A stretch of DNA of 64,000 nt. It comes from Desulfocapsa sp. (GTDB lineage: Bacteria > Desulfobacterota > Desulfobulbia > Desulfobulbales > Desulfocapsaceae). The notes beneath the pieces were generated by a model. That model was not told the origin of the DNA. It made no database searches and worked only from the letters and a program-made list of their open reading frames with translations. A program made the translations under genes and the position numbers. Below, piece by piece: positions 28,790 through 38,909 of the stretch (its first letter is position 1; every line of letters begins with the position of its first letter). The DNA is taken from assembly GCA_013792135.1 (NCBI GenBank), contig VMSP01000170.1, positions 34,116 through 98,115 of the forward strand, written 5' to 3'.

Positions 28790-29836
28790 ATGCATATGGC
28801 AGATGCGCTTTTGTCACCGGCAGTTGGGGGTACCATGTGGGGAGTTGCCGCCGGTACCATCGCCTACAGTTCCATGAAGGTGAAAAAGGAGCTTGATGAC
28901 AGCAAGGTCCCGCTCATGGGTGTTCTCGGCGCCTTTATCTTTGCCGCCCAGATGATCAATTTTACCATTCCAGCTACTGGCTCCAGTGGGCATCTGGGAG
29001 GAGGGCTGCTGCTGGCGATCCTGCTCGGCCCCTATGCCGCCTTTCTCACCATCGCCTCGGTCCTGGTGGTGCAGTCGTTGTTTTTTGCCGACGGCGGCAT
29101 CCTGGCCCTGGGCTGCAATATCTTCAACCTCGGCTTCTTTCCGGCCTTTATCGCCTATCCCTTCATCTACCGCAAGATAGCAGGCAGCCAGCCGGGCCGG
29201 ACACGGTTGAGCGTTGCTGCCATTATTGCCGCGGTCGTCGGTCTGCAGATGGGGGCCTTCTCCGTGGTGCTGGAAACCGTCTCGTCGGGTATTTCATCCC
29301 TGCCATTCTCCACCTTTGTCGTGCTCATGCAGCCGATTCACCTGGCCATCGGTATAGTTGAAGGGCTGGTGACGGCGACGGTTGTCTCCTTTGTCGCTGC
29401 TGCCAGACCTGAGATACTGAGAGCGGCAAGCGAGTTGGTAACGCTTGGCAGCCTGCCGCTGCGCAAGGTGCTGCTCTCTTTTCTGGCGGCCTCCCTGCTT
29501 ATCGGCGGCATTGTCTCCTGGTTTGCCTCGGAAAACCCGGACGGGCTGGAATGGGCCATCGCCAAAGTGACCGGCGCCGAAGAGGTGACCGGCACGGAAG
29601 AGGGTGTGCACACCATGCTGGCGTCTCTGCAGGAGAAAATCGCCTTTCTGCCCGACTACTCCTTCAAGCAGGAAGCCGCAACGACAGCTGAAGGGGAAGT
29701 CCATGTCGATGGGGTAAAAGGGGACGAGCCGGGCAGGCTCGGCACAAGTGTGGCCGGCGGCGTCGGTGCCCTGCTTTCGCTTGCCCTGGCCTTTGTCATC
29801 GGTTTTGCCTTAAGGCGGCATCAACAGTTCGCCTGA
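28790..29836 (+). CDS. nikMN: ECF nickel transporter substrate-specific component, NikM-NikN fusion
   Basis: 348-residue membrane protein. The N-terminus MHMADALLSPAVGG supplies the His ligands essential in CbiM/NikM S components. About six helices follow, with GHLGGGLLLAILLGPYAA and GCNIFNLGFFPAF as family signatures. After about residue 210 an extra membrane segment and the ENPDGLEWA (PDGLE) motif mark the NikN-type C-terminal domain, and a final helix ends the protein. Cobalt CbiM proteins look similar; nickel is chosen because nikR and its operator precede the gene. First gene of nikMN-nikQ-nikO. Confidence 0.93.
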   Translation: MHMADALLSPAVGGTMWGVAAGTIAYSSMKVKKELDDSKVPLMGVLGAFIFAAQMINFTIPATGSSGHLGGGLLLAILLGPYAAFLTIASVLVVQSLFFADGGILALGCNIFNLGFFPAFIAYPFIYRKIAGSQPGRTRLSVAAIIAAVVGLQMGAFSVVLETVSSGISSLPFSTFVVLMQPIHLAIGIVEGLVTATVVSFVAAARPEILRAASELVTLGSLPLRKVLLSFLAASLLIGGIVSWFASENPDGLEWAIAKVTGAEEVTGTEEGVHTMLASLQEKIAFLPDYSFKQEAATTAEGEVHVDGVKGDEPGRLGTSVAGGVGALLSLALAFVIGFALRRHQQFA

Positions 29837-29969
29837 TCCCAGCGTTCTTCTTTGTTGGACGTCAGAAACTGCACGAACGGTTAAACCAGACGAATTCTCT
29901 GCAATGATGTCTGGCCCTGGCTTATGGCGCAGGGCTTCTGACTCTTGATTTTCTGATTTCTTAATTGCC

Positions 29970-30782
29970 ATGCGATCCATTGACGGAGCAGTACTCGATC
30001 TGAAACGGCTGGATCTGCTGGCAACAGCAGATTCGGTCATCCACCGCCTTGACGCCCGGGCCAAGGTGCTGACGACCCTCGTCTTTATCGTCACGGTGGT
30101 TTCCTTCAATCGCTATGAGTTTACCGCCCTCTTTCCCTTTTTCATCTATCCCGTGGTTACCGCATCGCTTGGCAATCTGCCGGGCGGCTATATCGTCAGA
30201 AAGATCATCATGGTGATCCCCTTTGCCTTTGTGGTGGGCATGCTGAACCCGATCTTTGATCGGGAGCTCTTTGTCCGGATTGGCCCCCTTGCCATCACCG
30301 GCGGCTGGATATCCTGCGCCTCGATCATCCTCCGCACCGTGCTCACCGTCGGTGCCGCCTTTATCCTGGTGGGGGTGACGGGCTTTCTCTCCGTCTGCGA
30401 GGCCCTTGAGCGCCTGGGCACGCCGAGAACCTTCACCGTGCAGCTGCTTTTCCTCTATCGTTATATCTTCGTGCTCACCGAGGAAGGGGCCAGGGCCTCA
30501 CGGGCCCGGGAGCTCCGCTCCTGCGGCAGGAAAGGGCTGGGGCTCGCCAGTTTCGGCCCTCTTATCGGCCATCTGCTGATCCGTACCTGGCTGCGGGCCG
30601 AGCGGATCCACATGGCCATGCTGGCCCGCGGCTTCACCGGCGAATTCCACTCGCGCCAGGTATCCGGTTTCGGCTGGCGTGAGCTGTTCTATGTGGCCGG
30701 TTGGTCAGCCGTCTTTCTCGTCCTCAGGATGGAAAATGGTGCCCAGTGGCTGGGCCGGCTGGTTACGGGGGGTCTGTCATGA
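29970..30782 (+). CDS. nikQ: ECF transporter transmembrane T component
   Basis: 270-residue CbiQ-type membrane protein. It opens with a soluble HRLDARAKVLTTLVFI element, has several helices, and carries the coupling motif in SRARELRSCGRKGLG and the second MAMLARGFTGEF, which contact the ATPase in ECF transporters. It follows nikMN after 133 bases and its stop overlaps the ATPase start by four bases. It couples ATP hydrolysis to movement of the NikMN component. Confidence 0.93.
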   Translation: MRSIDGAVLDLKRLDLLATADSVIHRLDARAKVLTTLVFIVTVVSFNRYEFTALFPFFIYPVVTASLGNLPGGYIVRKIIMVIPFAFVVGMLNPIFDRELFVRIGPLAITGGWISCASIILRTVLTVGAAFILVGVTGFLSVCEALERLGTPRTFTVQLLFLYRYIFVLTEEGARASRARELRSCGRKGLGLASFGPLIGHLLIRTWLRAERIHMAMLARGFTGEFHSRQVSGFGWRELFYVAGWSAVFLVLRMENGAQWLGRLVTGGLS

Positions 30783-31534
30783 GCCATCATATTGTCGAGG
30801 TCAAACATCTGCAGCATGTCTATGCCGATGGCACCGTTGCCCTGCAGGATGTGTCCTTTATCATCCATCATGGTGAGTCGGTGGCGATTATCGGCGCCAA
30901 CGGGGCCGGGAAATCAACCCTCCTGCTCCATCTCAACGGCTATCTGACTGCCAATTCCGGCGAGATTCGCATCGGTGATTTCCCGCTCACTAAGAAAACC
31001 CTGCCGGAGATCCGGCGCACGGTGGGTATGGTCTTCCAGGATGCAGACGATCAGCTCTTCATGCCCACGGTCTTTGATGATGTGGCCTTCGGGCCGTTCA
31101 ATCTGGGACTGCCGGTGGATGAAGTCAAGCAGCGGGTCAAAGCCGTCCTCGAACAGGTGGGTGCCGCCCATCTGCAGGAAAAACCGCCCTATCATCTCTC
31201 CGGCGGGGAGAAGAAAAGGGTGGCCATTGCCACGGTCCTTTCCATGTCGCCGGACATCCTGGTCATGGATGAGCCGACCAGCGGTCTCGACCCTTTTGCC
31301 CGCCGCCAGCTCATGGGCCTGCTCCGCGATTTCCAGCACACCAAAATCTTCACCAGCCATGATCTGGACATGGTGGTCGAGCTCTGTCAGCGGACCATCG
31401 TCCTCCACCAGGGAATAGTCAAGGCCGACGGACCCACCCTGGAGATCTTCAACGACGACGCCCTGCTGGCCGAGTGCCGCCTGGAAAAACCGCTCTCCAT
31501 GCAGGGCTGTCCGGTCTGCGGCAAGGGCAGATGA
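30779..31534 (+). CDS. nikO: ECF transporter ATP-binding component
   Basis: 251-residue ABC ATPase. Walker A is GANGAGKST (about 40-48), Q-loop VGMVFQDADDQLF, signature LSGGEKKR, Walker B DILVMDEPTSGLDPF and the switch His in TSHDLDMV. The DDQLF stretch after the Q-loop is typical of ECF (CbiO/NikO) ATPases. It ends with a Cys pair in CPVCGKGR. ATG at 30779 overlaps the nikQ stop (ATGA); the frame is open further upstream but that would overlap nikQ deeply. Last gene of the operon. Confidence 0.95.
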   Translation: MSHHIVEVKHLQHVYADGTVALQDVSFIIHHGESVAIIGANGAGKSTLLLHLNGYLTANSGEIRIGDFPLTKKTLPEIRRTVGMVFQDADDQLFMPTVFDDVAFGPFNLGLPVDEVKQRVKAVLEQVGAAHLQEKPPYHLSGGEKKRVAIATVLSMSPDILVMDEPTSGLDPFARRQLMGLLRDFQHTKIFTSHDLDMVVELCQRTIVLHQGIVKADGPTLEIFNDDALLAECRLEKPLSMQGCPVCGKGR

Positions 31535-31613
31535 GATTCCCGTAGAGAACGCCAGCGTTCATAGGGTGGTGATCGGATACTATTAAGCAATTGATTGGCT
31601 GAGGAAGAACAGT

Positions 31614-31659
31614 ATAAGGGGCCAGTATATGAAATTATTTACATATACTGGCCCCTTAT
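31614..31659. terminator. Long inverted repeat after the nik operon
   Basis: An 18-bp perfect stem (31614-31631 with 31642-31659, core GGGGCCAGTATATG) encloses a 10-base AT loop. It lies 80 bases past nikO and probably ends that transcript, although only TTATTGTAT follows. Confidence 0.6.
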
Positions 31660-31736
31660 TGTATAGGAGGAGTGGTCTTTTGCTGGAGCAAACTTGTAAT
31701 CCCGTTATTATTATGATTGGCATTCGAGTTGATTTC

Positions 31737-31787
31737 AATATTTGACTATCTGCCATTGCAATGGCATTCTAAAAATGGACAATTTCA
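31737..31787. repeat. 51-base dispersed repeat, copy B
   Basis: Second copy of the element at 27432-27482, 43 of 51 bases alike and in the same orientation. It ends 62 bases before the 73-residue membrane protein gene, nearly the same distance as copy A to its gene. Confidence 0.75.
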
Positions 31788-31849
31788 ACAAGTCCCCGGC
31801 GCGCTGTCCGTGGCGGGAATCCAAACGTTTCTTTTAAGGAGGAGTCGAA

Positions 31850-32071
31850 ATGAATGCAGTCAAGGGTGTGGCAATCGCGCTGATCCTGGCCGGTGCCCTG
31901 GGGTTGGCGTATGGCGGTTTCAGCTACACCAAGGAGACCCAACAGGTCAAGTTGGGACCGATTGAGATGTCAGTAAAAGAAAACAAGACGGTTAATATCC
32001 CGGCCTGGGCGGGCGTGGCAGCGATAGTAGTTGGCGGAGTGCTTCTGCTTGCCGGTGGGAAAAAATCATAA
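31850..32071 (+). CDS. Small two-helix membrane protein
   Basis: 73-residue protein with two membrane segments, GVAIALILAGALGLAYGG (about 5-22) and WAGVAAIVVGGVLLLAGG (about 53-70), joined by a polar YTKETQQVKLGPIEMSVKENKTVNIP loop. Similar short hypothetical proteins with this pattern are common in Deltaproteobacteria; no function is known. AAGGAGGAGT precedes the ATG, a strong ribosome site. It has its own transcription unit. Confidence 0.85.
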   Translation: MNAVKGVAIALILAGALGLAYGGFSYTKETQQVKLGPIEMSVKENKTVNIPAWAGVAAIVVGGVLLLAGGKKS

Positions 32072-32130
32072 ACGTGAGGAGAAACAATGGTCATGAGAGA
32101 TCTCTTAATTTTTCTTGCAACCATTGCATC

Positions 32131-32210
32131 CCCCTTGCCCGCCTGAGAACATACTAGTGTGATCTGTTCTCAGCCGTTGTCTCCAACGATATCGAGCGCG
32201 AGGCAAGGGG
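32131..32210. repeat. Nested inverted repeats before the methyltransferase
   Basis: Outer arms CCCCTTGCC (32131-32139) and GGCAAGGGG (32202-32210) enclose inner arms CTGAGAACA (32143-32151) and TGTTCTCAG (32165-32173). The pair could fold into a branched RNA in the 249-base gap or end the small gene's transcript. Confidence 0.55.
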
Positions 32211-32320
32211 CGGGACTGATGCGCCCCCCTATCTTTGTTGTTGGTGAGGCGAACCGTTCTATCTTGCAGGGCATGTAGCAGCCAGTTGACATAGGCTGAT
32301 AGCAAAGGGTGGAAAGATTT

Positions 32321-32962
32321 ATGGATTTTCGACAGGTTGCCAATAGAAACAAATATGATTTAGCAGCTTCCAGCTATGACCTTATTGCCTTCTTGTTGAG
32401 CTTAGGCCAGGCGCGCAAACTTTACGAAGAGGTTGGGAAAAACCTCGATATCCCAGCCGCCGGGACGGTTGTTGAGCTCGGCTGTGGGCCGGCTACTGTC
32501 GTGCCCAGCCTTCTGCAGGTGATTGACGATTCGGCGCAGATCATCGGCATTGATTTTTCGCAGCAAATGATTGCCATCGCCAACCGCAAGAAGGAGGCCA
32601 ATGGTTGGCACAACGTCCAGTTTGAATGTATGGATATGTATGATTTTTCGCCCGCGCAAAAAGTTGATGCGGTGATTTTCTGTCTGGCTCTGACCGCGAT
32701 GCCCGATTACCAGAAGGCCCTTGATCATGCCCTTTCGATCTTGAAACCAGGGGGCCAATTATTGATTGTCGACTCAATCCCCCTCCATTCCAAATGGTAT
32801 CATCTCCTTACCAATGCCTATATCTATCTCAAGTCCCTAGTCGTAGGTGCCAAGCCGGTTGCTGAAATCCTTGCGTACATTGACCGGAAGACCATTGCCG
32901 TCGAAAAAAAGACCATGGCTTTGGGGGTCTACACGTTGATAAAATCGAGAACTCCTCAATAA
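32321..32962 (+). CDS. Class I SAM-dependent methyltransferase (UbiE/Methyltransf_11 type)
   Basis: 213-residue methyltransferase. Motif I is VVELGCGPATVVPSLL, the acidic post-I residue is in IIGIDFSQQMI, and QFECMDMYDFSPAQKVDAVIFCLALTAMPDYQKAL plus LKPGGQLLIVDSIPL follow as motifs II and III. The C-terminus is short, as in small-molecule or quinone/lipid methyltransferases; substrate unknown. I prefer ATG 32321 after GGAAAG; GTG 32309 is four codons upstream. It sits alone just before the reverse transcriptase, with 190 bases between, so co-function is not shown. Confidence 0.85.
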   Translation: MDFRQVANRNKYDLAASSYDLIAFLLSLGQARKLYEEVGKNLDIPAAGTVVELGCGPATVVPSLLQVIDDSAQIIGIDFSQQMIAIANRKKEANGWHNVQFECMDMYDFSPAQKVDAVIFCLALTAMPDYQKALDHALSILKPGGQLLIVDSIPLHSKWYHLLTNAYIYLKSLVVGAKPVAEILAYIDRKTIAVEKKTMALGVYTLIKSRTPQ

Positions 32963-33152
32963 GGACCGTGGCGCTGAAAGTGGTGCCAAGGAGAAGCTGG
33001 GGTCATTGATGATATGGGGCTTGTGCAATAGGACAAATTCTTCATTCTTCTTGAGAATTATAGATCCTGCTGGTAGATAACAGGATTGTTCTACAATTTT
33101 ATGGTATTTGATTTAGGTATGGTGTTACCCTTATTCTGCTCTGGAGCAAAAC

Positions 33153-34733
33153 ATGCCGTTGACACTTTCTGACTCAGCTCTCGATTGGTCTTTAAAACAC
33201 GGCCTTACTTGGGGCGATACAGATATCTTTCCAGCCATCTTCGAGTTCGAAGCAATCTCCGATGATTGGAAGAATGTTAAAGTATCGATTCAAACTACAG
33301 ATATGCTGGATTGGAAGGTACGGCCATACCGTCGCTGCTTGGTCCCAAAACATCGGTTCGGATTTCGAGTTTCGACTCAGTTAGATCCTTTGGATTTTCT
33401 GGTTTTCACTGCATTGATTCGTGAAATTGGTGAAAAGCTCGAAGCGTGCCGTATTCCCGTTGCGGATAACATTGTCCATTCTTATCGTTTTGCCCCTGAT
33501 GCCGATGGGCGAATGTTCTCCGACAAAAGCACGTATCGGAGTTTTCAAAAGGCATCTCGTGATGCCTGCGATACCTACAACCCGAGTCACGTCGTAATTG
33601 CTGATATTGCCGATTTTTTCCCTAGACTTTATACGCATCGTATTGATAATGCCCTTGATAGTGCACTTGAAATTGGCCATATGCATTCAAAAGCGCTTAA
33701 ACAGCTAATTGGCCACTGGGCCGGTGCGTACTCGTATGGTATTCCCGTTGGTTCTGCCGCATCCCGCCTTGTTGCCGAGATCACCATTTCTGACATCGAT
33801 CAACTTTTGCTTTCTGAAGGTGCACGCTATGTAAGATACTCGGATGACTTTCGGTTTTTCTGCAAGTCAGAGGGCGAGGCATATAAGTATCTAACTCTAA
33901 TCGCTCGCGCACTGATAGAGAATCACGGGCTTACACTACAACAGAACAAAACCAAGATTATTTCGATTGACGTATTCCGAACGAAGTATTTGCGTGAGAA
34001 CGAGAAGCGAGAGATCGAGACGTTGTCTGAGCGTTTCTATGAATTGCTTGCGGAAATCGGTATTGAGGATACTTACGGGGAAATCGACTATCACGCCTTA
34101 CTGCCCGAGTATCAGGACGCAATCGACCAACTTAACCTCGAAGGCATCCTGCAAGAACAAATCGATGAGGAAGAACCAGACCTTTCGCTGTTGAAGTTTC
34201 TCCTGCGAAGACTGGCACAACTGGGAGATACGGATGCAATTGACTTAATCTTCGATAACTTTGGCAAGTTCGTTCCCGTGGTTCGAGAAACGATCGAGTA
34301 TCTCCTGCATTTGGAAACCTTACCCGCTGCGAAGAAGGCAATCCTCGGCGAGCGGTTGATCGGTATATATCGGGATGAAAAGTCAACAGCTTCACACCTC
34401 GAATACTCACGAATGTACTTGTTAAGGCCGTTCGCATTGGATTGTGATTGGAATTCTGACGATCAATACGTCAGGATATTCAATGACTCACTTGATGAAT
34501 TGTCAAGTCGCGAGATACTCTTGGCGATGGGCAGAAGTAAGAAAGATTTTTGGTTTCGGGGTAGAAAACAGAATCTACAGGGAATGACTGCATGGATGCG
34601 TAGAGCCTTTATTTACGGGGCTTCCTGCCTACCAAGAGATGAGTACAAACATTGGATTCGAGGAGTCGAGGGTCAATTGGATGGTGTTGAGCGAGCAGTT
34701 GCTCACTGGGCACGTAAGAATCCAATAGCATAA
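33153..34733 (+). CDS. Stand-alone reverse transcriptase, unknown-group/Abi (defence-associated) type
   Basis: 526-residue RNA-directed DNA polymerase. N-terminal DTDIFPAIFEFEAI and FRVSTQLDPLDFLV are shared with phage-defence RTs as I remember them. Catalytic motif A is VVIADIADFFPR (D151), motif B GIPVGSAASRLVAEI (196-210), motif C YVRYSDDFRFF (YSDD 229-232), motif D-like HGLTLQQNKTKI; all key acids are present. About 240 residues follow, mostly helical with repeated amphipathic helices and a conserved-looking WMRRAFIYGA, rather than a group II maturase or HNH domain. Retron hallmarks (NAXXH, VTG) are not seen. GGAG precedes the ATG. Codon use is more AT-rich than rhlE next door, suggesting transfer. 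Function most likely antiphage, by template-directed or untemplated DNA synthesis; the exact DRT/UG class was not determined. Confidence 0.88.
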   Translation: MPLTLSDSALDWSLKHGLTWGDTDIFPAIFEFEAISDDWKNVKVSIQTTDMLDWKVRPYRRCLVPKHRFGFRVSTQLDPLDFLVFTALIREIGEKLEACRIPVADNIVHSYRFAPDADGRMFSDKSTYRSFQKASRDACDTYNPSHVVIADIADFFPRLYTHRIDNALDSALEIGHMHSKALKQLIGHWAGAYSYGIPVGSAASRLVAEITISDIDQLLLSEGARYVRYSDDFRFFCKSEGEAYKYLTLIARALIENHGLTLQQNKTKIISIDVFRTKYLRENEKREIETLSERFYELLAEIGIEDTYGEIDYHALLPEYQDAIDQLNLEGILQEQIDEEEPDLSLLKFLLRRLAQLGDTDAIDLIFDNFGKFVPVVRETIEYLLHLETLPAAKKAILGERLIGIYRDEKSTASHLEYSRMYLLRPFALDCDWNSDDQYVRIFNDSLDELSSREILLAMGRSKKDFWFRGRKQNLQGMTAWMRRAFIYGASCLPRDEYKHWIRGVEGQLDGVERAVAHWARKNPIA

Positions 34734-34837
34734 ATCATAGTTTCCTTCCTATAGGGCTGCTCTTGTCATGCTGCGTCCTTACCCGAAAGTGAACCGAATT
34801 CGTGTGAAAAATCGCACAGGCTGGTTGTTTTGAATGT

Positions 34838-34944
34838 TAGACTCTTTGAGTCTACTGCTGGTGCCACTATCATCTTCCGTAACGTAGAACTTCTCTGTCT
34901 CGATAGGCAGCGCCCTATCCACGGTCGAGACCATCAACCTTTTT
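34838..34944. other. Structured DNA between the reverse transcriptase and rhlE
   Basis: TAGACTC-TTT-GAGTCTA (34838-34854) is a tight hairpin. GTCTCGA (34897-34903) pairs with TCGAGAC (34925-34931) around an inner TAGG/CCTA stem, and a T6 run follows at about 34940-34945. This could be the RT terminator, an RT-linked noncoding RNA, or the rhlE leader. Confidence 0.5.
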
Positions 34945-34959
34945 TCGAGAAACCGCCCC

Positions 34960-36237
34960 ATGTCATTTGCCTCCCTCGGACTTTCCGAAGCCCTTCTTCG
35001 TGCCATTAATGAAAGCGGCTATACTACTCCCACTCCGATCCAGCTCAAGGCGATCCCTGCGGTTCTCTCCGGTAAGGATGTCATGGCCGCGGCCCAGACC
35101 GGTACCGGTAAGACCGCCGGTTTTGTCCTGCCGCTGCTGCAGCGTCTGGCTGGCGGCCCCAAGGTGCAGGTGAATCACATCCGCGTGCTGGTGCTGACCC
35201 CGACCCGAGAGCTGGCGGTGCAGGTTGAGCAGAGCGTTGCCACCTATGGCAAACACCTGTCGCTGAAATCGGCCGTGGTTTACGGCGGGGTGAAGATCAA
35301 TCCGCAGATGATGAAACTGCGCGGCGGGGTCGATGTGCTGGTGGCGACTCCGGGACGTCTGCTGGACTTGTTCAACCAGAACGCCGTGAAGTTTGCGCAG
35401 GTGGAGACGCTGGTGCTCGATGAGGCCGACCGGATGCTCGATCTGGGGTTCATCACAGATATCCGCAAGATCCTGGCTCTGCTGCCCCCAAGGCGCCAGA
35501 ACCTTCTCTTCTCGGCCACCTTTTCCAGCGACATCCGTAAGCTCACAGCGGGACTCCTCAGAAATCCGGTGCTGATAGAGGTCAGCCCGCGCAACTCCGC
35601 TCCCAGAAGTGTGAAACAGTGGGTGTATGAGGTCGACAAGGGCAAGAAGCCGGCCCTGCTCAGTCATATGGTGCGCAACCAGGGCTGGGAACAGGTGTTG
35701 GTCTTCGTCCGCACCAAGAACGGGGCCGACAGCCTGGCTCGGAAACTGGGGGGCGACGGCATCTCGACGGCGGTGATCCACGGTGACAAGTCTCAGTCCG
35801 AGCGTTCCCGCGCCCTGGCCGACTTCAAAGAGGGTAAGGTCCGGGTCCTGGTCGCCACCGATATTGCCGCGCGCGGCATCGACATCAGTGAACTGCCGCA
35901 CGTGATCAATTTTGATCTGCCCAAGGTCGCTGAGGACTACGTCCACCGCATTGGCCGGACTGGTCGTGCCGGTTCCAAGGGGGAGGCGATCTCGCTGGTC
36001 AGCGCCGATGAGGTCTTGCTGCTCTCGGCGATCGAGACCCTGATCGGCCAGCTTCTGGTACGCGAGGTGGCGACCGGTTTTATCCCGACCCATCATGTCC
36101 CCCTGACCCACCAACTCCAGGCGCGCCCCAAAAAGCCAAAAAAACCAAAGCCGGTGCAGGATCGGGGTGAGGCTCGGAAAACGGATGGGGAACAGAAAAG
36201 CGGGGACCTCAAACCACGCCGGGGCCGCAAGTCGTAG
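34960..36237 (+). CDS. rhlE: DEAD-box RNA helicase, RhlE type
   Basis: 425-residue ATP-dependent RNA helicase. Q motif [26 protein letters not shown] leads into Walker [20 protein letters not shown] and TPGRLLD, DEAD in [13 protein letters not shown], then the second domain with [26 protein letters not shown] and HRIGRTGR. The tail (about 375-425) is Lys/Arg/Pro-rich ([10 protein letters not shown]), typical of RhlE C-termini for RNA contact. It should unwind structured RNA in ribosome assembly or decay. It is followed by the thioredoxin-CcdA gene 115 bases on. Confidence 0.95.
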
Positions 36238-36352
36238 GCTGCCGGGAAAACCGAAAGGGACAACGGAAGGCCGAAGAAAATACCTGGTTTTCCATTGCCA
36301 GAACGTATCATGGATGTCCCGTACTTCTCCTGCCACTTCTGGAGCTAACGTG

Positions 36353-37585
36353 ATGAAGATTTCGTCCTCTTTTTTGGCCGTACTGTCCTGGCTCAAGGAA
36401 ATCCTTGACGATCCTTTCCGCAGGTACTTTTTTCTTGCTCTCATCCTCCTGGCCCTGATCCTGATTGTCCGCGGGGAGGAAAAGCGGCCCCAGGAGGGGC
36501 TGGTTGCTGAGGAAGCGGTCCATTTCTTTTATCATCCCACCTGTCCCCACTGCCGCGCCCAGAAACAGTTCCATCTCTATCTGCAACAGAAATACTCGGA
36601 ACTCTCGATCATTGCCCATGACACCTCCAGGCCCGAAGAGGCTAGCCGTATGGTGGCGATGGCCAGAGAGCGGGGGCTAGCCCCTGATCGCCTGGCCGTG
36701 CCGATCACCTTTGTCGGTCCTTATGTGCTGATCGGTTTCGATCGCCCGGAAAACAGCGGGGTGACCCTTGAAAAGGCCATCGCCGCCCATCTCTACAAGA
36801 CCCCTGAGGTTTTTACCGAGAGCGATGAACAGTGGCTCACCAAGGACACCGTGGACCTGGGCTGGTTCGGGGTGATCCGCACGGGTGACTATTCGCTCCC
36901 CGTGCTCACTGTCCTCTTCGGATTGATCGACGGTTTCAATCCCTGCGCCATGTGGGTGCTGGTCTACATGCTTTCCCTGGTGGCCAGCCTGAACGAGAGA
37001 AAAAAAGTCTGGATTCTGGTTGGCTCCTTTCTCGTCGCCTCGGCAATCCTCTATTTCCTGTTGATGACCGCCTGGCTCAATGTCTTCCTTTTTTTAGGAT
37101 ACCTGCGTCCTCTCACCATTGTCATCGGCTGTTTTGCCATGGGCGCTGGAGGGTTGAGTGTCCGGGAATATATACGGGAAAAGGGGGAGGTTACCTGCAA
37201 GGTGGGTGATCCCGCAAGTCGGAAAAAGACCATGAATCGGATCGAGCGGGTGATAGCGGCACCGGTGAGTCTCGCCACCCTGTCGGCCGTCATCATCTTG
37301 GCCTTTGTCATCAATTCCATAGAGTTTGCCTGCTCTGCGGCCCTGCCGGCCATTTACACACATATTCTTTCCCTTCACCATCTTGCTACCCTCAGGTATT
37401 ACGGCTATATACTTCTCTATGATTTATTCTTTATGCTCGACGACCTGATCATCTTTACCCTGGCTGTCCTCGCTTTGGAGAGCAGGGTGGGGCAGAGATA
37501 TGCCGGCCATTGCAAGGCTGTGGGCGGGATTCTCCTTCTGGTTCTGGGGGTGATCATGGTCTTTTGGCCGGAACTGTTGCGCTGA
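36353..37585 (+). CDS. Thioredoxin-fold / CcdA-DsbD-like membrane fusion protein
   Basis: 410-residue membrane thiol-redox protein. A membrane anchor (about 22-42, YFFLALILLALILIV) precedes a thioredoxin/glutaredoxin-like domain with the CPHC active site in FFYHPTCPHCRAQK (about 65-75). From about residue 190 a CcdA-like core begins with GLIDGFNPCAMWVLVYML and has six helices; the partner cysteine lies in INSIEFACSAALPAIY. The architecture moves electrons from cytoplasmic thiols across the membrane. A Cys in EVTCKVGD lies in a loop. ATG 36353 follows GGAG; longer frames overlap rhlE. The target outside is unknown. Confidence 0.88.
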   Translation: MKISSSFLAVLSWLKEILDDPFRRYFFLALILLALILIVRGEEKRPQEGLVAEEAVHFFYHPTCPHCRAQKQFHLYLQQKYSELSIIAHDTSRPEEASRMVAMARERGLAPDRLAVPITFVGPYVLIGFDRPENSGVTLEKAIAAHLYKTPEVFTESDEQWLTKDTVDLGWFGVIRTGDYSLPVLTVLFGLIDGFNPCAMWVLVYMLSLVASLNERKKVWILVGSFLVASAILYFLLMTAWLNVFLFLGYLRPLTIVIGCFAMGAGGLSVREYIREKGEVTCKVGDPASRKKTMNRIERVIAAPVSLATLSAVIILAFVINSIEFACSAALPAIYTHILSLHHLATLRYYGYILLYDLFFMLDDLIIFTLAVLALESRVGQRYAGHCKAVGGILLLVLGVIMVFWPELLR

Positions 37586-37681
37586 CTTTCTTACAAAAAA
37601 TAACTTGCGGCCTGAACGATCTGGTCGCCATCCTTTACGACCGGACATCAGTACGTATCCACCATTGAGGAGCAGTAAACA

Positions 37682-38263
37682 ATGAGTACAGAACAAACAT
37701 TACAGGCACGGAGCGAATCTAAATGTGAATTGTGTGGCGTAACAGAGGGGCTCGCTATCTATGAAGTTCCCCCTCGCTCAAATGGCAGTGCTGATGAGTG
37801 CGTATTTATCTGTGCAACGTGCCGCGAACAGATTGAGGATCCGGAGAAAGTGGATGCCCAGCACTGGCGGTGCCTGAACGAGAGTATGTGGAGCCAGGTG
37901 CCGGCCGTGCAGGTCGTCGCCTGGCGGATGCTCAAACGTCTGAGCACGGAAGATTGGGCGCAGGGTTTACTCGACATGCTCTATCTGGATGAAGATACTC
38001 AGGCCTGGGCGCAGGTAACGGGCGCAGGGGCAGGGGGTGAAGATGCGGTCAAACATGTCGACAGCAACGGCACAACGCTTGAGGCAGGCGACACGGTCAC
38101 CCTGATCAAGGATCTCACTGTGAAAGGGGCCAACTTTACGGCCAAGCGGGGCACAGTTGTCCGCGGTATTTCGCTGGTTGCCGATAACCCTGAGCATATT
38201 GAGGCCCGTGTAAGTGGCCAGCAGATTGTTATTCTGACGAAGTATGTGAAGAAGGCGAACTGA
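37682..38263 (+). CDS. phnA: PhnA/YjdM-family zinc-ribbon protein
   Basis: 193-residue cytoplasmic protein of the PhnA family. The N-terminal zinc ribbon has CELCG (about 16-20) and CATCREQ (about 43-49). The C-terminal PhnA domain follows from about 120 with TLEAGDTVTLIKDLTVKGANFTAKRGTVVRGI and EARVSGQQIVILTKYVKK. Despite the old name, it is not the phosphonoacetate hydrolase; its role is not settled. Short ribosome site GAGGAG before ATG. Single gene. Confidence 0.93.
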   Translation: MSTEQTLQARSESKCELCGVTEGLAIYEVPPRSNGSADECVFICATCREQIEDPEKVDAQHWRCLNESMWSQVPAVQVVAWRMLKRLSTEDWAQGLLDMLYLDEDTQAWAQVTGAGAGGEDAVKHVDSNGTTLEAGDTVTLIKDLTVKGANFTAKRGTVVRGISLVADNPEHIEARVSGQQIVILTKYVKKAN

Positions 38264-38354
38264 TAAAATGACTCTCCGGGCCGGGGCATAGGAACATTGC
38301 CTGTTAGCTGTGCTGAATTCTCTCGTTGAGCCAAAAAAATGATAAGGAGCTGAT

Positions 38355-38909
38355 ATGAACACTTGCCTGATAGTGGTTGACCTGCAGAATGACTATTTCC
38401 CCGGCGGCACCATGGAACTGCTTGGTATCAAGGAAGCTGCGGCAAATGCACAGCTTCTTCTGGGGGAATGGAGAAAGGCAAAACTCCCTGTTATCCATGT
38501 CCAGCACATTGCTGCTCAGCCCGGCGCGACGTTTTTCTTAGCTGAGACAGGTGGGGCCAGGATAAATAAAATGGTAACTCCCCTGGAGGATGAGAAAGTT
38601 GTCGTAAAAAACTTTCCCAACAGTTTCCGTGGCACCACTCTGCTGGAGATCTTGAAAAACATTAAAACAGAGAATCTGCTTATTTGCGGCGCCATGAGCC
38701 ACATGTGTATAGATGCCACAACACGTGCTGCCTTCGATCTTGGCTTCAACTGTACTGTTGCCGAAGATGCCTGCGCTACCAAAGATCTGATTTTCAAGGG
38801 CAGGACCATAAGAGCATCAGATGTTCATGCATCCTTTATGGCGGCATTATCTGCCCCTTATGCCAAGGTGCTTGCAACACAGGAAATCATTAAAAGTATG
38901 GCGGAATAA
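38355..38909 (+). CDS. Isochorismatase-family cysteine hydrolase
   Basis: 184-residue hydrolase of the isochorismatase/nicotinamidase fold. The catalytic triad is visible: Asp in LIVVDLQNDYFPGG, Lys in VVKNFPNSF, and the nucleophile Cys in LICGAMSHMCIDATTRAAFDLG. It hydrolyses amide or vinyl-ether bonds of small molecules; the substrate cannot be read from sequence. AAGGAGCTGAT precedes the ATG. It is followed 81 bases later by an SDR gene on the same strand. Confidence 0.93.
   Translation: MNTCLIVVDLQNDYFPGGTMELLGIKEAAANAQLLLGEWRKAKLPVIHVQHIAAQPGATFFLAETGGARINKMVTPLEDEKVVVKNFPNSFRGTTLLEILKNIKTENLLICGAMSHMCIDATTRAAFDLGFNCTVAEDACATKDLIFKGRTIRASDVHASFMAALSAPYAKVLATQEIIKSMAE

What the first reader, a model, noticed from the sequence alone, without database searches (positions are those of the whole stretch)
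33153..34733. Stand-alone reverse transcriptase of the unknown-group/defence type
All catalytic RT motifs are intact (motif A D151, GIPVGS, YSDD), yet there is no maturase, HNH or retron hallmark, and about 240 residues of mostly helical sequence follow. The gene is more AT-rich than its neighbours and sits singly among housekeeping genes, as acquired defence genes do. Its DRT/UG class could not be fixed by eye and may be new.
Basis: partly seen in the sequence, partly recalled or inferred. Interest (0 to 1): 0.75.

Follow-up and report, generated by a model that had tools for sequence, protein, structure and literature searches.

The report
Nuclease-free DRT8 phage-defence reverse transcriptase
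This is an intact reverse transcriptase gene of the known anti-phage family DRT8 that sits alone, without the nuclease-like partner gene found beside its relatives in E. coli, so it likely stops phage infection through the DNA it is predicted to make, and it could show how the smallest form of this poorly understood defence works.

Summary
In detail: 33153-34733 (+) is an intact 526-residue reverse transcriptase (RT) with all catalytic motifs. Its class is not new: it matches PADLOC's Drt8 model full length (523 bits; next best 144). What is unusual is the missing partner. One paper describes DRT8 by a PD-(D/E)XK domain; I find such a gene, overlapping the RT stop, at 6 of 23 Drt8-type loci, all in one branch, and the pair in 105 of 5426 E. 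coli genomes. The window's clade lacks it, as do other distant branches. The AlphaFold model (pLDDT 90.8) matches DRT6, DRT4 and AbiK over RT plus helical tail, but DRT9 and DRT2 over the RT only, pointing to the template-free, self-primed group. Same-genus genomes show that only about 1.7 kb arrived: the RT, 16 bases before it and 102 after, at a site where relatives carry other cargo, some defence-like. Near homologues sit beside Pycsar and Lamassu. Likely mechanism (untested): self-primed, untemplated DNA synthesis causing abortive infection without a nuclease. Two 2026 papers still list DRT8's mechanism as unresolved. New variant of a known kind.

The parts
33153..34733 (+). Reverse transcriptase gene, DRT8 family, 526 aa
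   Evidence: ORF; PADLOC Drt8 523 bits over 5-523; RVT_1
33153..33998 (+). RT domain, residues 1-282
   Evidence: Residues 1-282/288 align with a group II intron RT at 2.4-2.6 A over 256-260 residues
33603..33605 (+). Motif A aspartate D151
   Evidence: Invariant in 74 of 74 and in 27 of 27 wider DRT8 rows
33738..33755 (+). GIPVGS motif, residues 196-201
   Evidence: Sequence; P198 and G200 invariant
33837..33848 (+). YSDD catalytic motif, residues 229-232
   Evidence: Sequence; D231 and D232 invariant
34011..34730 (+). Helical C-terminal half, residues 287-526, resembling the HEAT-like alphaRep of class 1 UG/Abi enzymes
   Evidence: Model; DRT6, AbiK, DRT4 and UG15 aligned to residue 517-523
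34074..34076 (+). Y308, first candidate for the self-priming residue in this clade (inferred)
   Evidence: Y in 74 of 74 rows of A1, but only in 19 of 27 wider rows
33143..33146 (+). GGAG, likely ribosome-binding site
   Evidence: Sequence; function inferred
33137..34835 (+). Segment absent from the same-genus genomes compared (about 1,699 bp): the acquired unit
   Evidence: Left homology ends at 33129 or 33136 (5 of 5 genomes that have the left block); right homology resumes at 34836-34847 in 5 of 7, later in 2
34734..34835 (+). 3' tail that came with the gene; about 75 bases resemble the 3' flank of a Zoogloea homologue (L024)
   Evidence: 6 of 1000 shuffles score as high
33034..33136 (+). 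Resident upstream block shared with 5 of 7 relatives compared, which carry other cargo
34836..34959 (+). Resident downstream block before the helicase gene
   Evidence: Matched, in whole or part, in 7 of 7 relatives compared
32309..32962 (+). Methyltransferase gene, left neighbour
   Evidence: Methyltransf_25
34960..36237 (+). DEAD-box (RhlE-like) helicase gene, right neighbour
   Evidence: DEAD and Helicase_C; 79-96% identical copies in 12 other same-genus genomes

Best explanation
The gene encodes an intact stand-alone DRT8-family reverse transcriptase with no PD-(D/E)XK nuclease-type gene beside it, and it likely protects the cell by making template-free, self-primed DNA whose accumulation during phage infection would stop growth of the infected cell. 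Shown here: DRT8 family membership by profile, an intact active site under purifying selection, no adjacent partner gene, a minimal transferred unit, defence genes beside two of the closest homologues. Predicted: a class 1 UG/Abi fold with a helical repeat tail. Inferred from that fold: hexamer formation, priming by a protein hydroxyl (Y308 first choice), synthesis without an RNA template, and abortive infection driven by the DNA itself, as reported for DRT4, with no dedicated nuclease.
For: Drt8 profile 522.9 bits, residues 5-523, next RT_UG21 143.6; ten other Drt8-type RTs score 435-552. Model pLDDT 90.8; full-length structural matches to DRT6 (444 residues, 3.9 A), AbiK (456, 4.5 A), DRT4 (448, 4.5 A), UG15 (452, 4.6 A), AbiP2 (403) and AbiA (398), while DRT9 and DRT2 match 251-252 residues of the RT domain only; Foldseek's top 13 rows are DRT6, DRT4/UG15, AbiK and AbiP2. 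Papers (passages seen): class 1 enzymes carry alphaRep, oligomerise and make untemplated DNA (PMC13174585, PMC13275509); DRT4 is single-gene, Tyr-primed, random ssDNA (PMC13314766). No similarity of upstream or downstream flanks among window, L021, L022 and L023, so no conserved cis RNA seen; the acquired unit leaves 16 bases upstream and 102 downstream. A profile of the nuclease-type gene finds it at 6 of 23 loci and nowhere in the 64-kb window, L021-L024 or 12 other loci; those six RTs lie on one side of a branch (SH-aLRT 99), the window's wider clade on another (98). Pycsar next to L021, Lamassu next to L022.
Against: No activity was measured. The structural call rests on one predicted monomer; group II intron and DGR chains rank above DRT6 by Z, over the RT part mainly. 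Y308 is not conserved across DRT8 (7 of 15 distant rows), so the priming residue is a guess. The 102-base tail shares a hairpin-bearing stretch with L024, which could be part of an RNA. An effector in trans cannot be excluded: the nuclease search of four whole genomes found nothing, but held no genome with a known match. Context of the window's clade is known from few loci (window, L021, L022, L024 and the broken L023); L024 shows no defence gene that I recognised, and many listed members lie on short contigs that I could not read.
Confidence: 0.55

Rival explanations
1. It is a DRT8 enzyme whose DNA product activates an effector encoded elsewhere in the genome, for example an unlinked nuclease, so the gene is not self-sufficient.
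For: One DRT8 branch has a PD-(D/E)XK-type gene overlapping the RT stop codon, and a paper describes DRT8 by that domain (PMC12596737, one passage). Other branches carry a membrane-protein neighbour or a fused tail (L044 8xMP, L047).
Against: No homologue of that nuclease-type protein in the own genome or in three genomes with close homologues (0 of 4, no positive control). The unit that moved holds the RT alone.
Confidence: 0.2
2. It is an RNA-templated enzyme like DRT2, DRT9 or DRT10, with a short noncoding RNA in the 102-base 3' tail.
For: About 75 bases of the tail resemble the 3' flank of the L024 gene (82-83% identical over its visible 162 residues; 6 of 1000 shuffles as high), and both fold a hairpin there.
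Against: No such similarity at L021 or L022; no Rfam match; DRT2 and DRT9 structures match the RT domain only; a 102-base tail is short beside the 137-nt DRT10 RNA (PMC12632851, passage).
Confidence: 0.12
3. It makes DNA of a fixed repeat sequence dictated by the protein itself, as Drt3b does, rather than random DNA.
For: Class 1 fold, the class to which Drt3b is assigned (PMC13174585, passages); product sequence of DRT8 not known.
Against: Only weak sequence similarity to Drt3b (NCBIfam 30.9 bits against a cut-off of 350).
Confidence: 0.08
4. It serves a non-defence cellular role or is a decaying passenger.
For: No phage assay of it is known to me; the homologue in L023 is broken.
Against: Intact active site in all 74 rows, purifying selection, patchy spread, and defence neighbours.
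Confidence: 0.05

Closest known systems
DRT8 with PD-(D/E)XK-type gene (E. coli genomes, viral contigs; L049, L051, L057-L060)
   Same: Same Drt8 profile at similar score (three of the six scanned: 536-552 bits), RT plus helical-tail length (28-31% identity), same residues R72, E97, R100, R112, S194, L493, E497 in 27 of 27 rows
   Different: Has an overlapping downstream nuclease-type gene; lies on one side of a well-supported branch away from the window; YVDD, YADD or FVDD instead of YSDD
DRT6 and DRT4 (UG15)
   Same: Nearest solved structures over the whole length; DRT4 is a single-gene defence (PMC13314766, passage)
   Different: About 14-17% sequence identity in the structural alignment; different PADLOC families
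AbiK, AbiA, AbiP2
   Same: RT plus helical repeat tail; full-length structural match
   Different: 13-17% identity; AbiK's Y44 (named in the title of entry 7z0z; that it is the primer is recalled) has no conserved tyrosine counterpart in the N-terminal part here (by inspection)
DRT2, DRT9, DRT10 (class 2)
   Same: RT domain fold (DRT2, DRT9)
   Different: Need a cis noncoding RNA (papers); DRT2 and DRT9 matched only over residues 4-288

Membership tests
DRT8 (PADLOC Drt8) | Full-length match to the family profile | tested here: met
   522.9 bits, 5-523 on 2-492 of 493; next family 143.6
DRT8 (PADLOC Drt8) | PD-(D/E)XK domain or gene, as described in PMC12596737 | tested here: not met
   None in the protein; a profile of the gene, which finds all six known copies, finds none in the 64-kb window; own genome also empty, without positive control. 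So: a member of the Drt8 RT family, not of the nuclease-type system
DRT8 (PADLOC Drt8) | Phage protection | not testable with these tools
   Family-level claim only, in print (PMC13213688, PMC13314766; passages)
Class 1 UG/Abi RT | RT fused to HEAT-like alphaRep | tested here: met
   Predicted structure aligns full length with AbiK, DRT4, UG15 and DRT6
Class 1 UG/Abi RT | Protein-primed, untemplated synthesis | not testable with these tools
   Inferred from fold
Class 2 UG RT | Conserved cis noncoding RNA | tested here: inconclusive
   No conserved flank among four loci, but a weak 3' match to L024; no Rfam match
Retron | Retron RT model above curated cut-off | tested here: not met
   Best retron model 39.8 bits against 235
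Group II intron RT | Maturase model above cut-off and intron RNA | tested here: not met
   60.4 bits against 300; no maturase domain; no Rfam match in 32963-34960
DGR | Template and variable repeats near the RT | tested here: not met
   One 27-nt, 74% pair is the only repeat of 24 nt or more found within 29500-38500

The most novel reading that the evidence does not exclude
A nuclease-free branch of DRT8 is a complete one-gene immune cassette: a self-primed, template-free polymerase that kills infected cells through its DNA alone and moves between phyla as a bare 1.7-kb unit dropped into a defence-cargo site. The nuclease of E. coli-type DRT8 would then be an addition in one branch rather than the core of the system.
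Probability: 0.4. Interest if true: 0.7.

Novelty: new variant of a known kind. Interest (0 to 1): 0.5.

Why it matters
Two 2026 papers list DRT8 as protective with its mechanism unresolved (PMC13213688, PMC13314766; passages seen). A branch without the nuclease-type gene separates the two halves of the question: what DNA does a DRT8 polymerase make, and is that DNA enough for defence? If one gene suffices, DRT8 joins DRT4 as a DNA-as-toxin system, and the nuclease becomes an add-on of one branch. The bounded insert also tells an experimenter which 1.7 kb to clone.

Tried and rejected
[quoted passage not shown] Upstream noncoding RNA: 174 of the 190 bases before the gene are resident DNA shared with same-genus genomes that lack the RT, and four loci share nothing there. 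Integron cassette: the right junction begins GTTAGAC, which looked like an attC end, but no partner motif was found by pattern, and the only inverted repeat near it in the window lies inside the gene's end; dropped. Small RNA in the left block: the consensus fold had 0 of 14 pairs changed on both sides, no Rfam match in the window, and two sub-threshold eukaryotic hits in relatives; dropped. Y308 as a universal primer: fails in distant DRT8. Phage records: no match; viral contigs: none with the single protein, 5 distant ones with the alignment. Of the 10 hotspot cargo proteins that I submitted, Pfam gave no family for 3 and PADLOC none for 8; the two Pfam hits of the first NTPase-like protein are below the curated cut-offs. 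Pfam did not name the nuclease-type proteins (four scanned, one weak unrelated hit); that assignment rests on the GD-x8-EIK and QxxxY motif in 5 of 5 aligned rows. Mestre et al. 2022, which as I recall defined DRT8, is not held and was not read; that Drt8 is UG7 is recalled, and fits the order of PADLOC accessions.

Rows dropped: the tree used 41 rows (15 distant, 26 near); L023, L024, L044, L045 and L046 (broken or partial) were left out, as were most of the 120 listed proteins. L047 was trimmed to its first 520 residues for the tree. The tree is unrooted (drawn at the midpoint), a quick search, with several long branches.

Full report
WHAT IS THERE. The open frame 33153-34733 (+) encodes 526 residues with motif A D151, GIPVGS at 196-201 and YSDD at 229-232, all invariant at their catalytic residues in 74 homologues. 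A likely ribosome-binding site, GGAG, lies 6 bases before the ATG. Pfam sees only RVT_1. Against two relatives (L021, L022) synonymous differences are saturated (0.91 and 0.90 of sites) while non-synonymous differences are 0.13 and 0.16, so the protein is under strong purifying selection.

WHICH FAMILY. PADLOC's Drt8 model matches residues 5-523 at 522.9 bits; the next family, RT_UG21, scores 143.6. Ten other relatives, eight of them only 28-33% identical to the window's RT, score 435-552 bits against the same model, so Drt8 is one broad family with several branches. Retron, group II intron and the other NCBIfam models that match are all below their cut-offs, and no template and variable repeats lie nearby.

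WHAT IS DIFFERENT. One paper says DRT8 is characterised by a PD-(D/E)XK domain (PMC12596737, one passage seen). I found such a gene in one branch only: in L049, L051, L057, L058, L059 and L060 a gene of about 235-261 codons begins just before the RT stop codon. In the five that I aligned, the motif GD-x8-EIK followed by QxxxY is invariant; Pfam did not name it. A profile built from those five, run on every frame of 23 Drt8-type loci, finds these six copies (303-419 bits) and nothing else up to E = 10, in the whole 64-kb window too. So 17 of 23 loci lack it: the window and its near relatives L021-L024, and 12 distant ones, some of them partial or short. The nuclease-type gene is thus the exception among the loci that I hold, although the published description takes it as the rule. 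In E. coli, 105 of 5426 genomes hold the RT plus this gene (match over at least 80% of the pair), the second gene annotated as hypothetical in the six rows listed. The six RTs with the gene lie on one side of a branch (SH-aLRT 99); the window's RT lies within another group (98; 41 rows; quick, unrooted tree; several long branches whose place is unsure). The window's neighbour downstream is the helicase, 226 bases on; L021 has Pycsar genes downstream, convergent; L022 has Lamassu genes upstream; L024 shows only the 3' side; L023 is a broken copy. A search of the own genome and three others for the nuclease-type protein found nothing (0 of 4), but no genome with a known match was included as a control.

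HOW IT GOT THERE. Of 97 genomes searched (the own one plus 96 relatives) only the own one has a full-length match; 25 others have weak, partial RT matches. The Drt8 profile rings in 5 of 297 genomes of the phylum sample, the own one included, and the RT at E up to 1e-40 in 3 of 369 and 5 of 398 genomes of two other samples, seed genome included. In same-genus genomes the helicase on the right is kept (16 of 17 genomes have some match, 13 of them, own included, at 79-100% identity) and the methyltransferase in 8 of 17, one of them in part. I fetched 7 of the 12 other orthologous helicase sites. None of the seven shows the RT. They hold a 208-codon gene; two genes, one weakly NTPase-like; two small genes; KilA-N plus FRG-domain genes plus an IS200-type transposase; a DUF4062 gene; a NYN-LOTUS gene; and, in the seventh, no clear gene. 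The FRG and KilA-N proteins match PADLOC candidate defence families PDC-S15 and PDC-S22; the other eight proteins submitted match no PADLOC family. The left resident block is found in 5 of the 7 and homology to the window ends there at 33129 or 33136; on the right it resumes at 34836-34847 in 5 of 7 and later in 2. So about 1,699 bases arrived: 16 before the ATG, the gene, and 102 after the stop. The RT is 79% identical to its Pseudomonas homologue, while the neighbouring helicase is 61% identical to the best match in that Pseudomonas genome, consistent with transfer. The relatives named in the records include Pseudomonas, Pandoraea, Burkholderia, Advenella and cyanobacteria.

CIS RNA. Upstream and downstream 400-base flanks of window, L021, L022 and L023 show no similarity above shuffles. 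One exception: the window's 3' tail and L024's 3' flank align over about 75 bases (6 of 1000 dinucleotide shuffles as high), with a hairpin in both. This may be leftover shared ancestry, or a part of the unit; it keeps an RNA-based rival alive at low weight. In one search L024 also exceeded 100 shuffles against L023, over a short stretch.

LITERATURE. Searches for DRT8 found 11 papers, several unrelated, of which 4 also hold reverse transcriptase and phage; UG7 with reverse transcriptase gave 10. In the passages I read, none describes a DRT8 mechanism or a DRT8 branch without the nuclease; two 2026 papers state that the mechanism is not established. A 2023 review lists a nucleoside-phosphorylase effector with some DRT8 (PMC10952713, passage), so partners vary. 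One study reports likely horizontal spread of DRT8 in the Pseudomonas syringae complex (PMC13182921, passage). Many subscription papers and the 2022 UG/Abi paper were not available.

VERDICT. An ordinary member by RT family, an unusual one by system: DRT8 without its nuclease. My odds: family assignment about 0.97; nuclease-free clade about 0.8; class 1 chemistry about 0.7; the whole mechanism 0.55.

Noticed in passing
window 32963-34959 and loci L089-L095: Variable-cargo site: the place upstream of the helicase gene carries different genes in the seven same-genus genomes compared, including FRG- and KilA-N-domain candidate defence genes, DUF4062 and NYN-LOTUS genes.
   Followed up: partly
window 33034-33113; L110:1168-1246: The resident block before the cargo has a second copy (76% over about 80 bases) elsewhere in the own genome, near different genes. 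No RNA structure support; nature unknown.
   Followed up: partly
L060:7596-8336 and 105 of 5426 E. coli genomes: The PD-(D/E)XK-type gene after the DRT8 RT is annotated as a hypothetical protein in the six E. coli rows listed, beside a tyrosine integrase.
   Followed up: partly
L047:2440-4920; L044:4655-5140: Other DRT8 branches have other tails: an 827-residue fusion with a membrane-like stretch and a weakly DUF3108-like end, and a broken RT followed by an 8xMP membrane-protein gene.
   Followed up: no
L053:5669-11677: On an Aminobacter plasmid a DRT8-type RT is followed by a retron type VII-A1 RT-DUF3800 gene and preceded by a HerA-like gene.
   Followed up: no
L043:10767-14139 and L054:10092-14077: Distant DRT8-type RTs lie close to Gabija genes (GajA and GajB matches in L043, GajB in L054).
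   Followed up: partly
L024:540-720: Two strong palindromes follow the DRT8 homologue in the Zoogloea contig (arms of about 15 and over 20 bases); the same motifs recur once each as their own reverse complement only.
   Followed up: no
L023:3868-5444: The betaproteobacterial MAG homologue is broken into separate frames.
   Followed up: no
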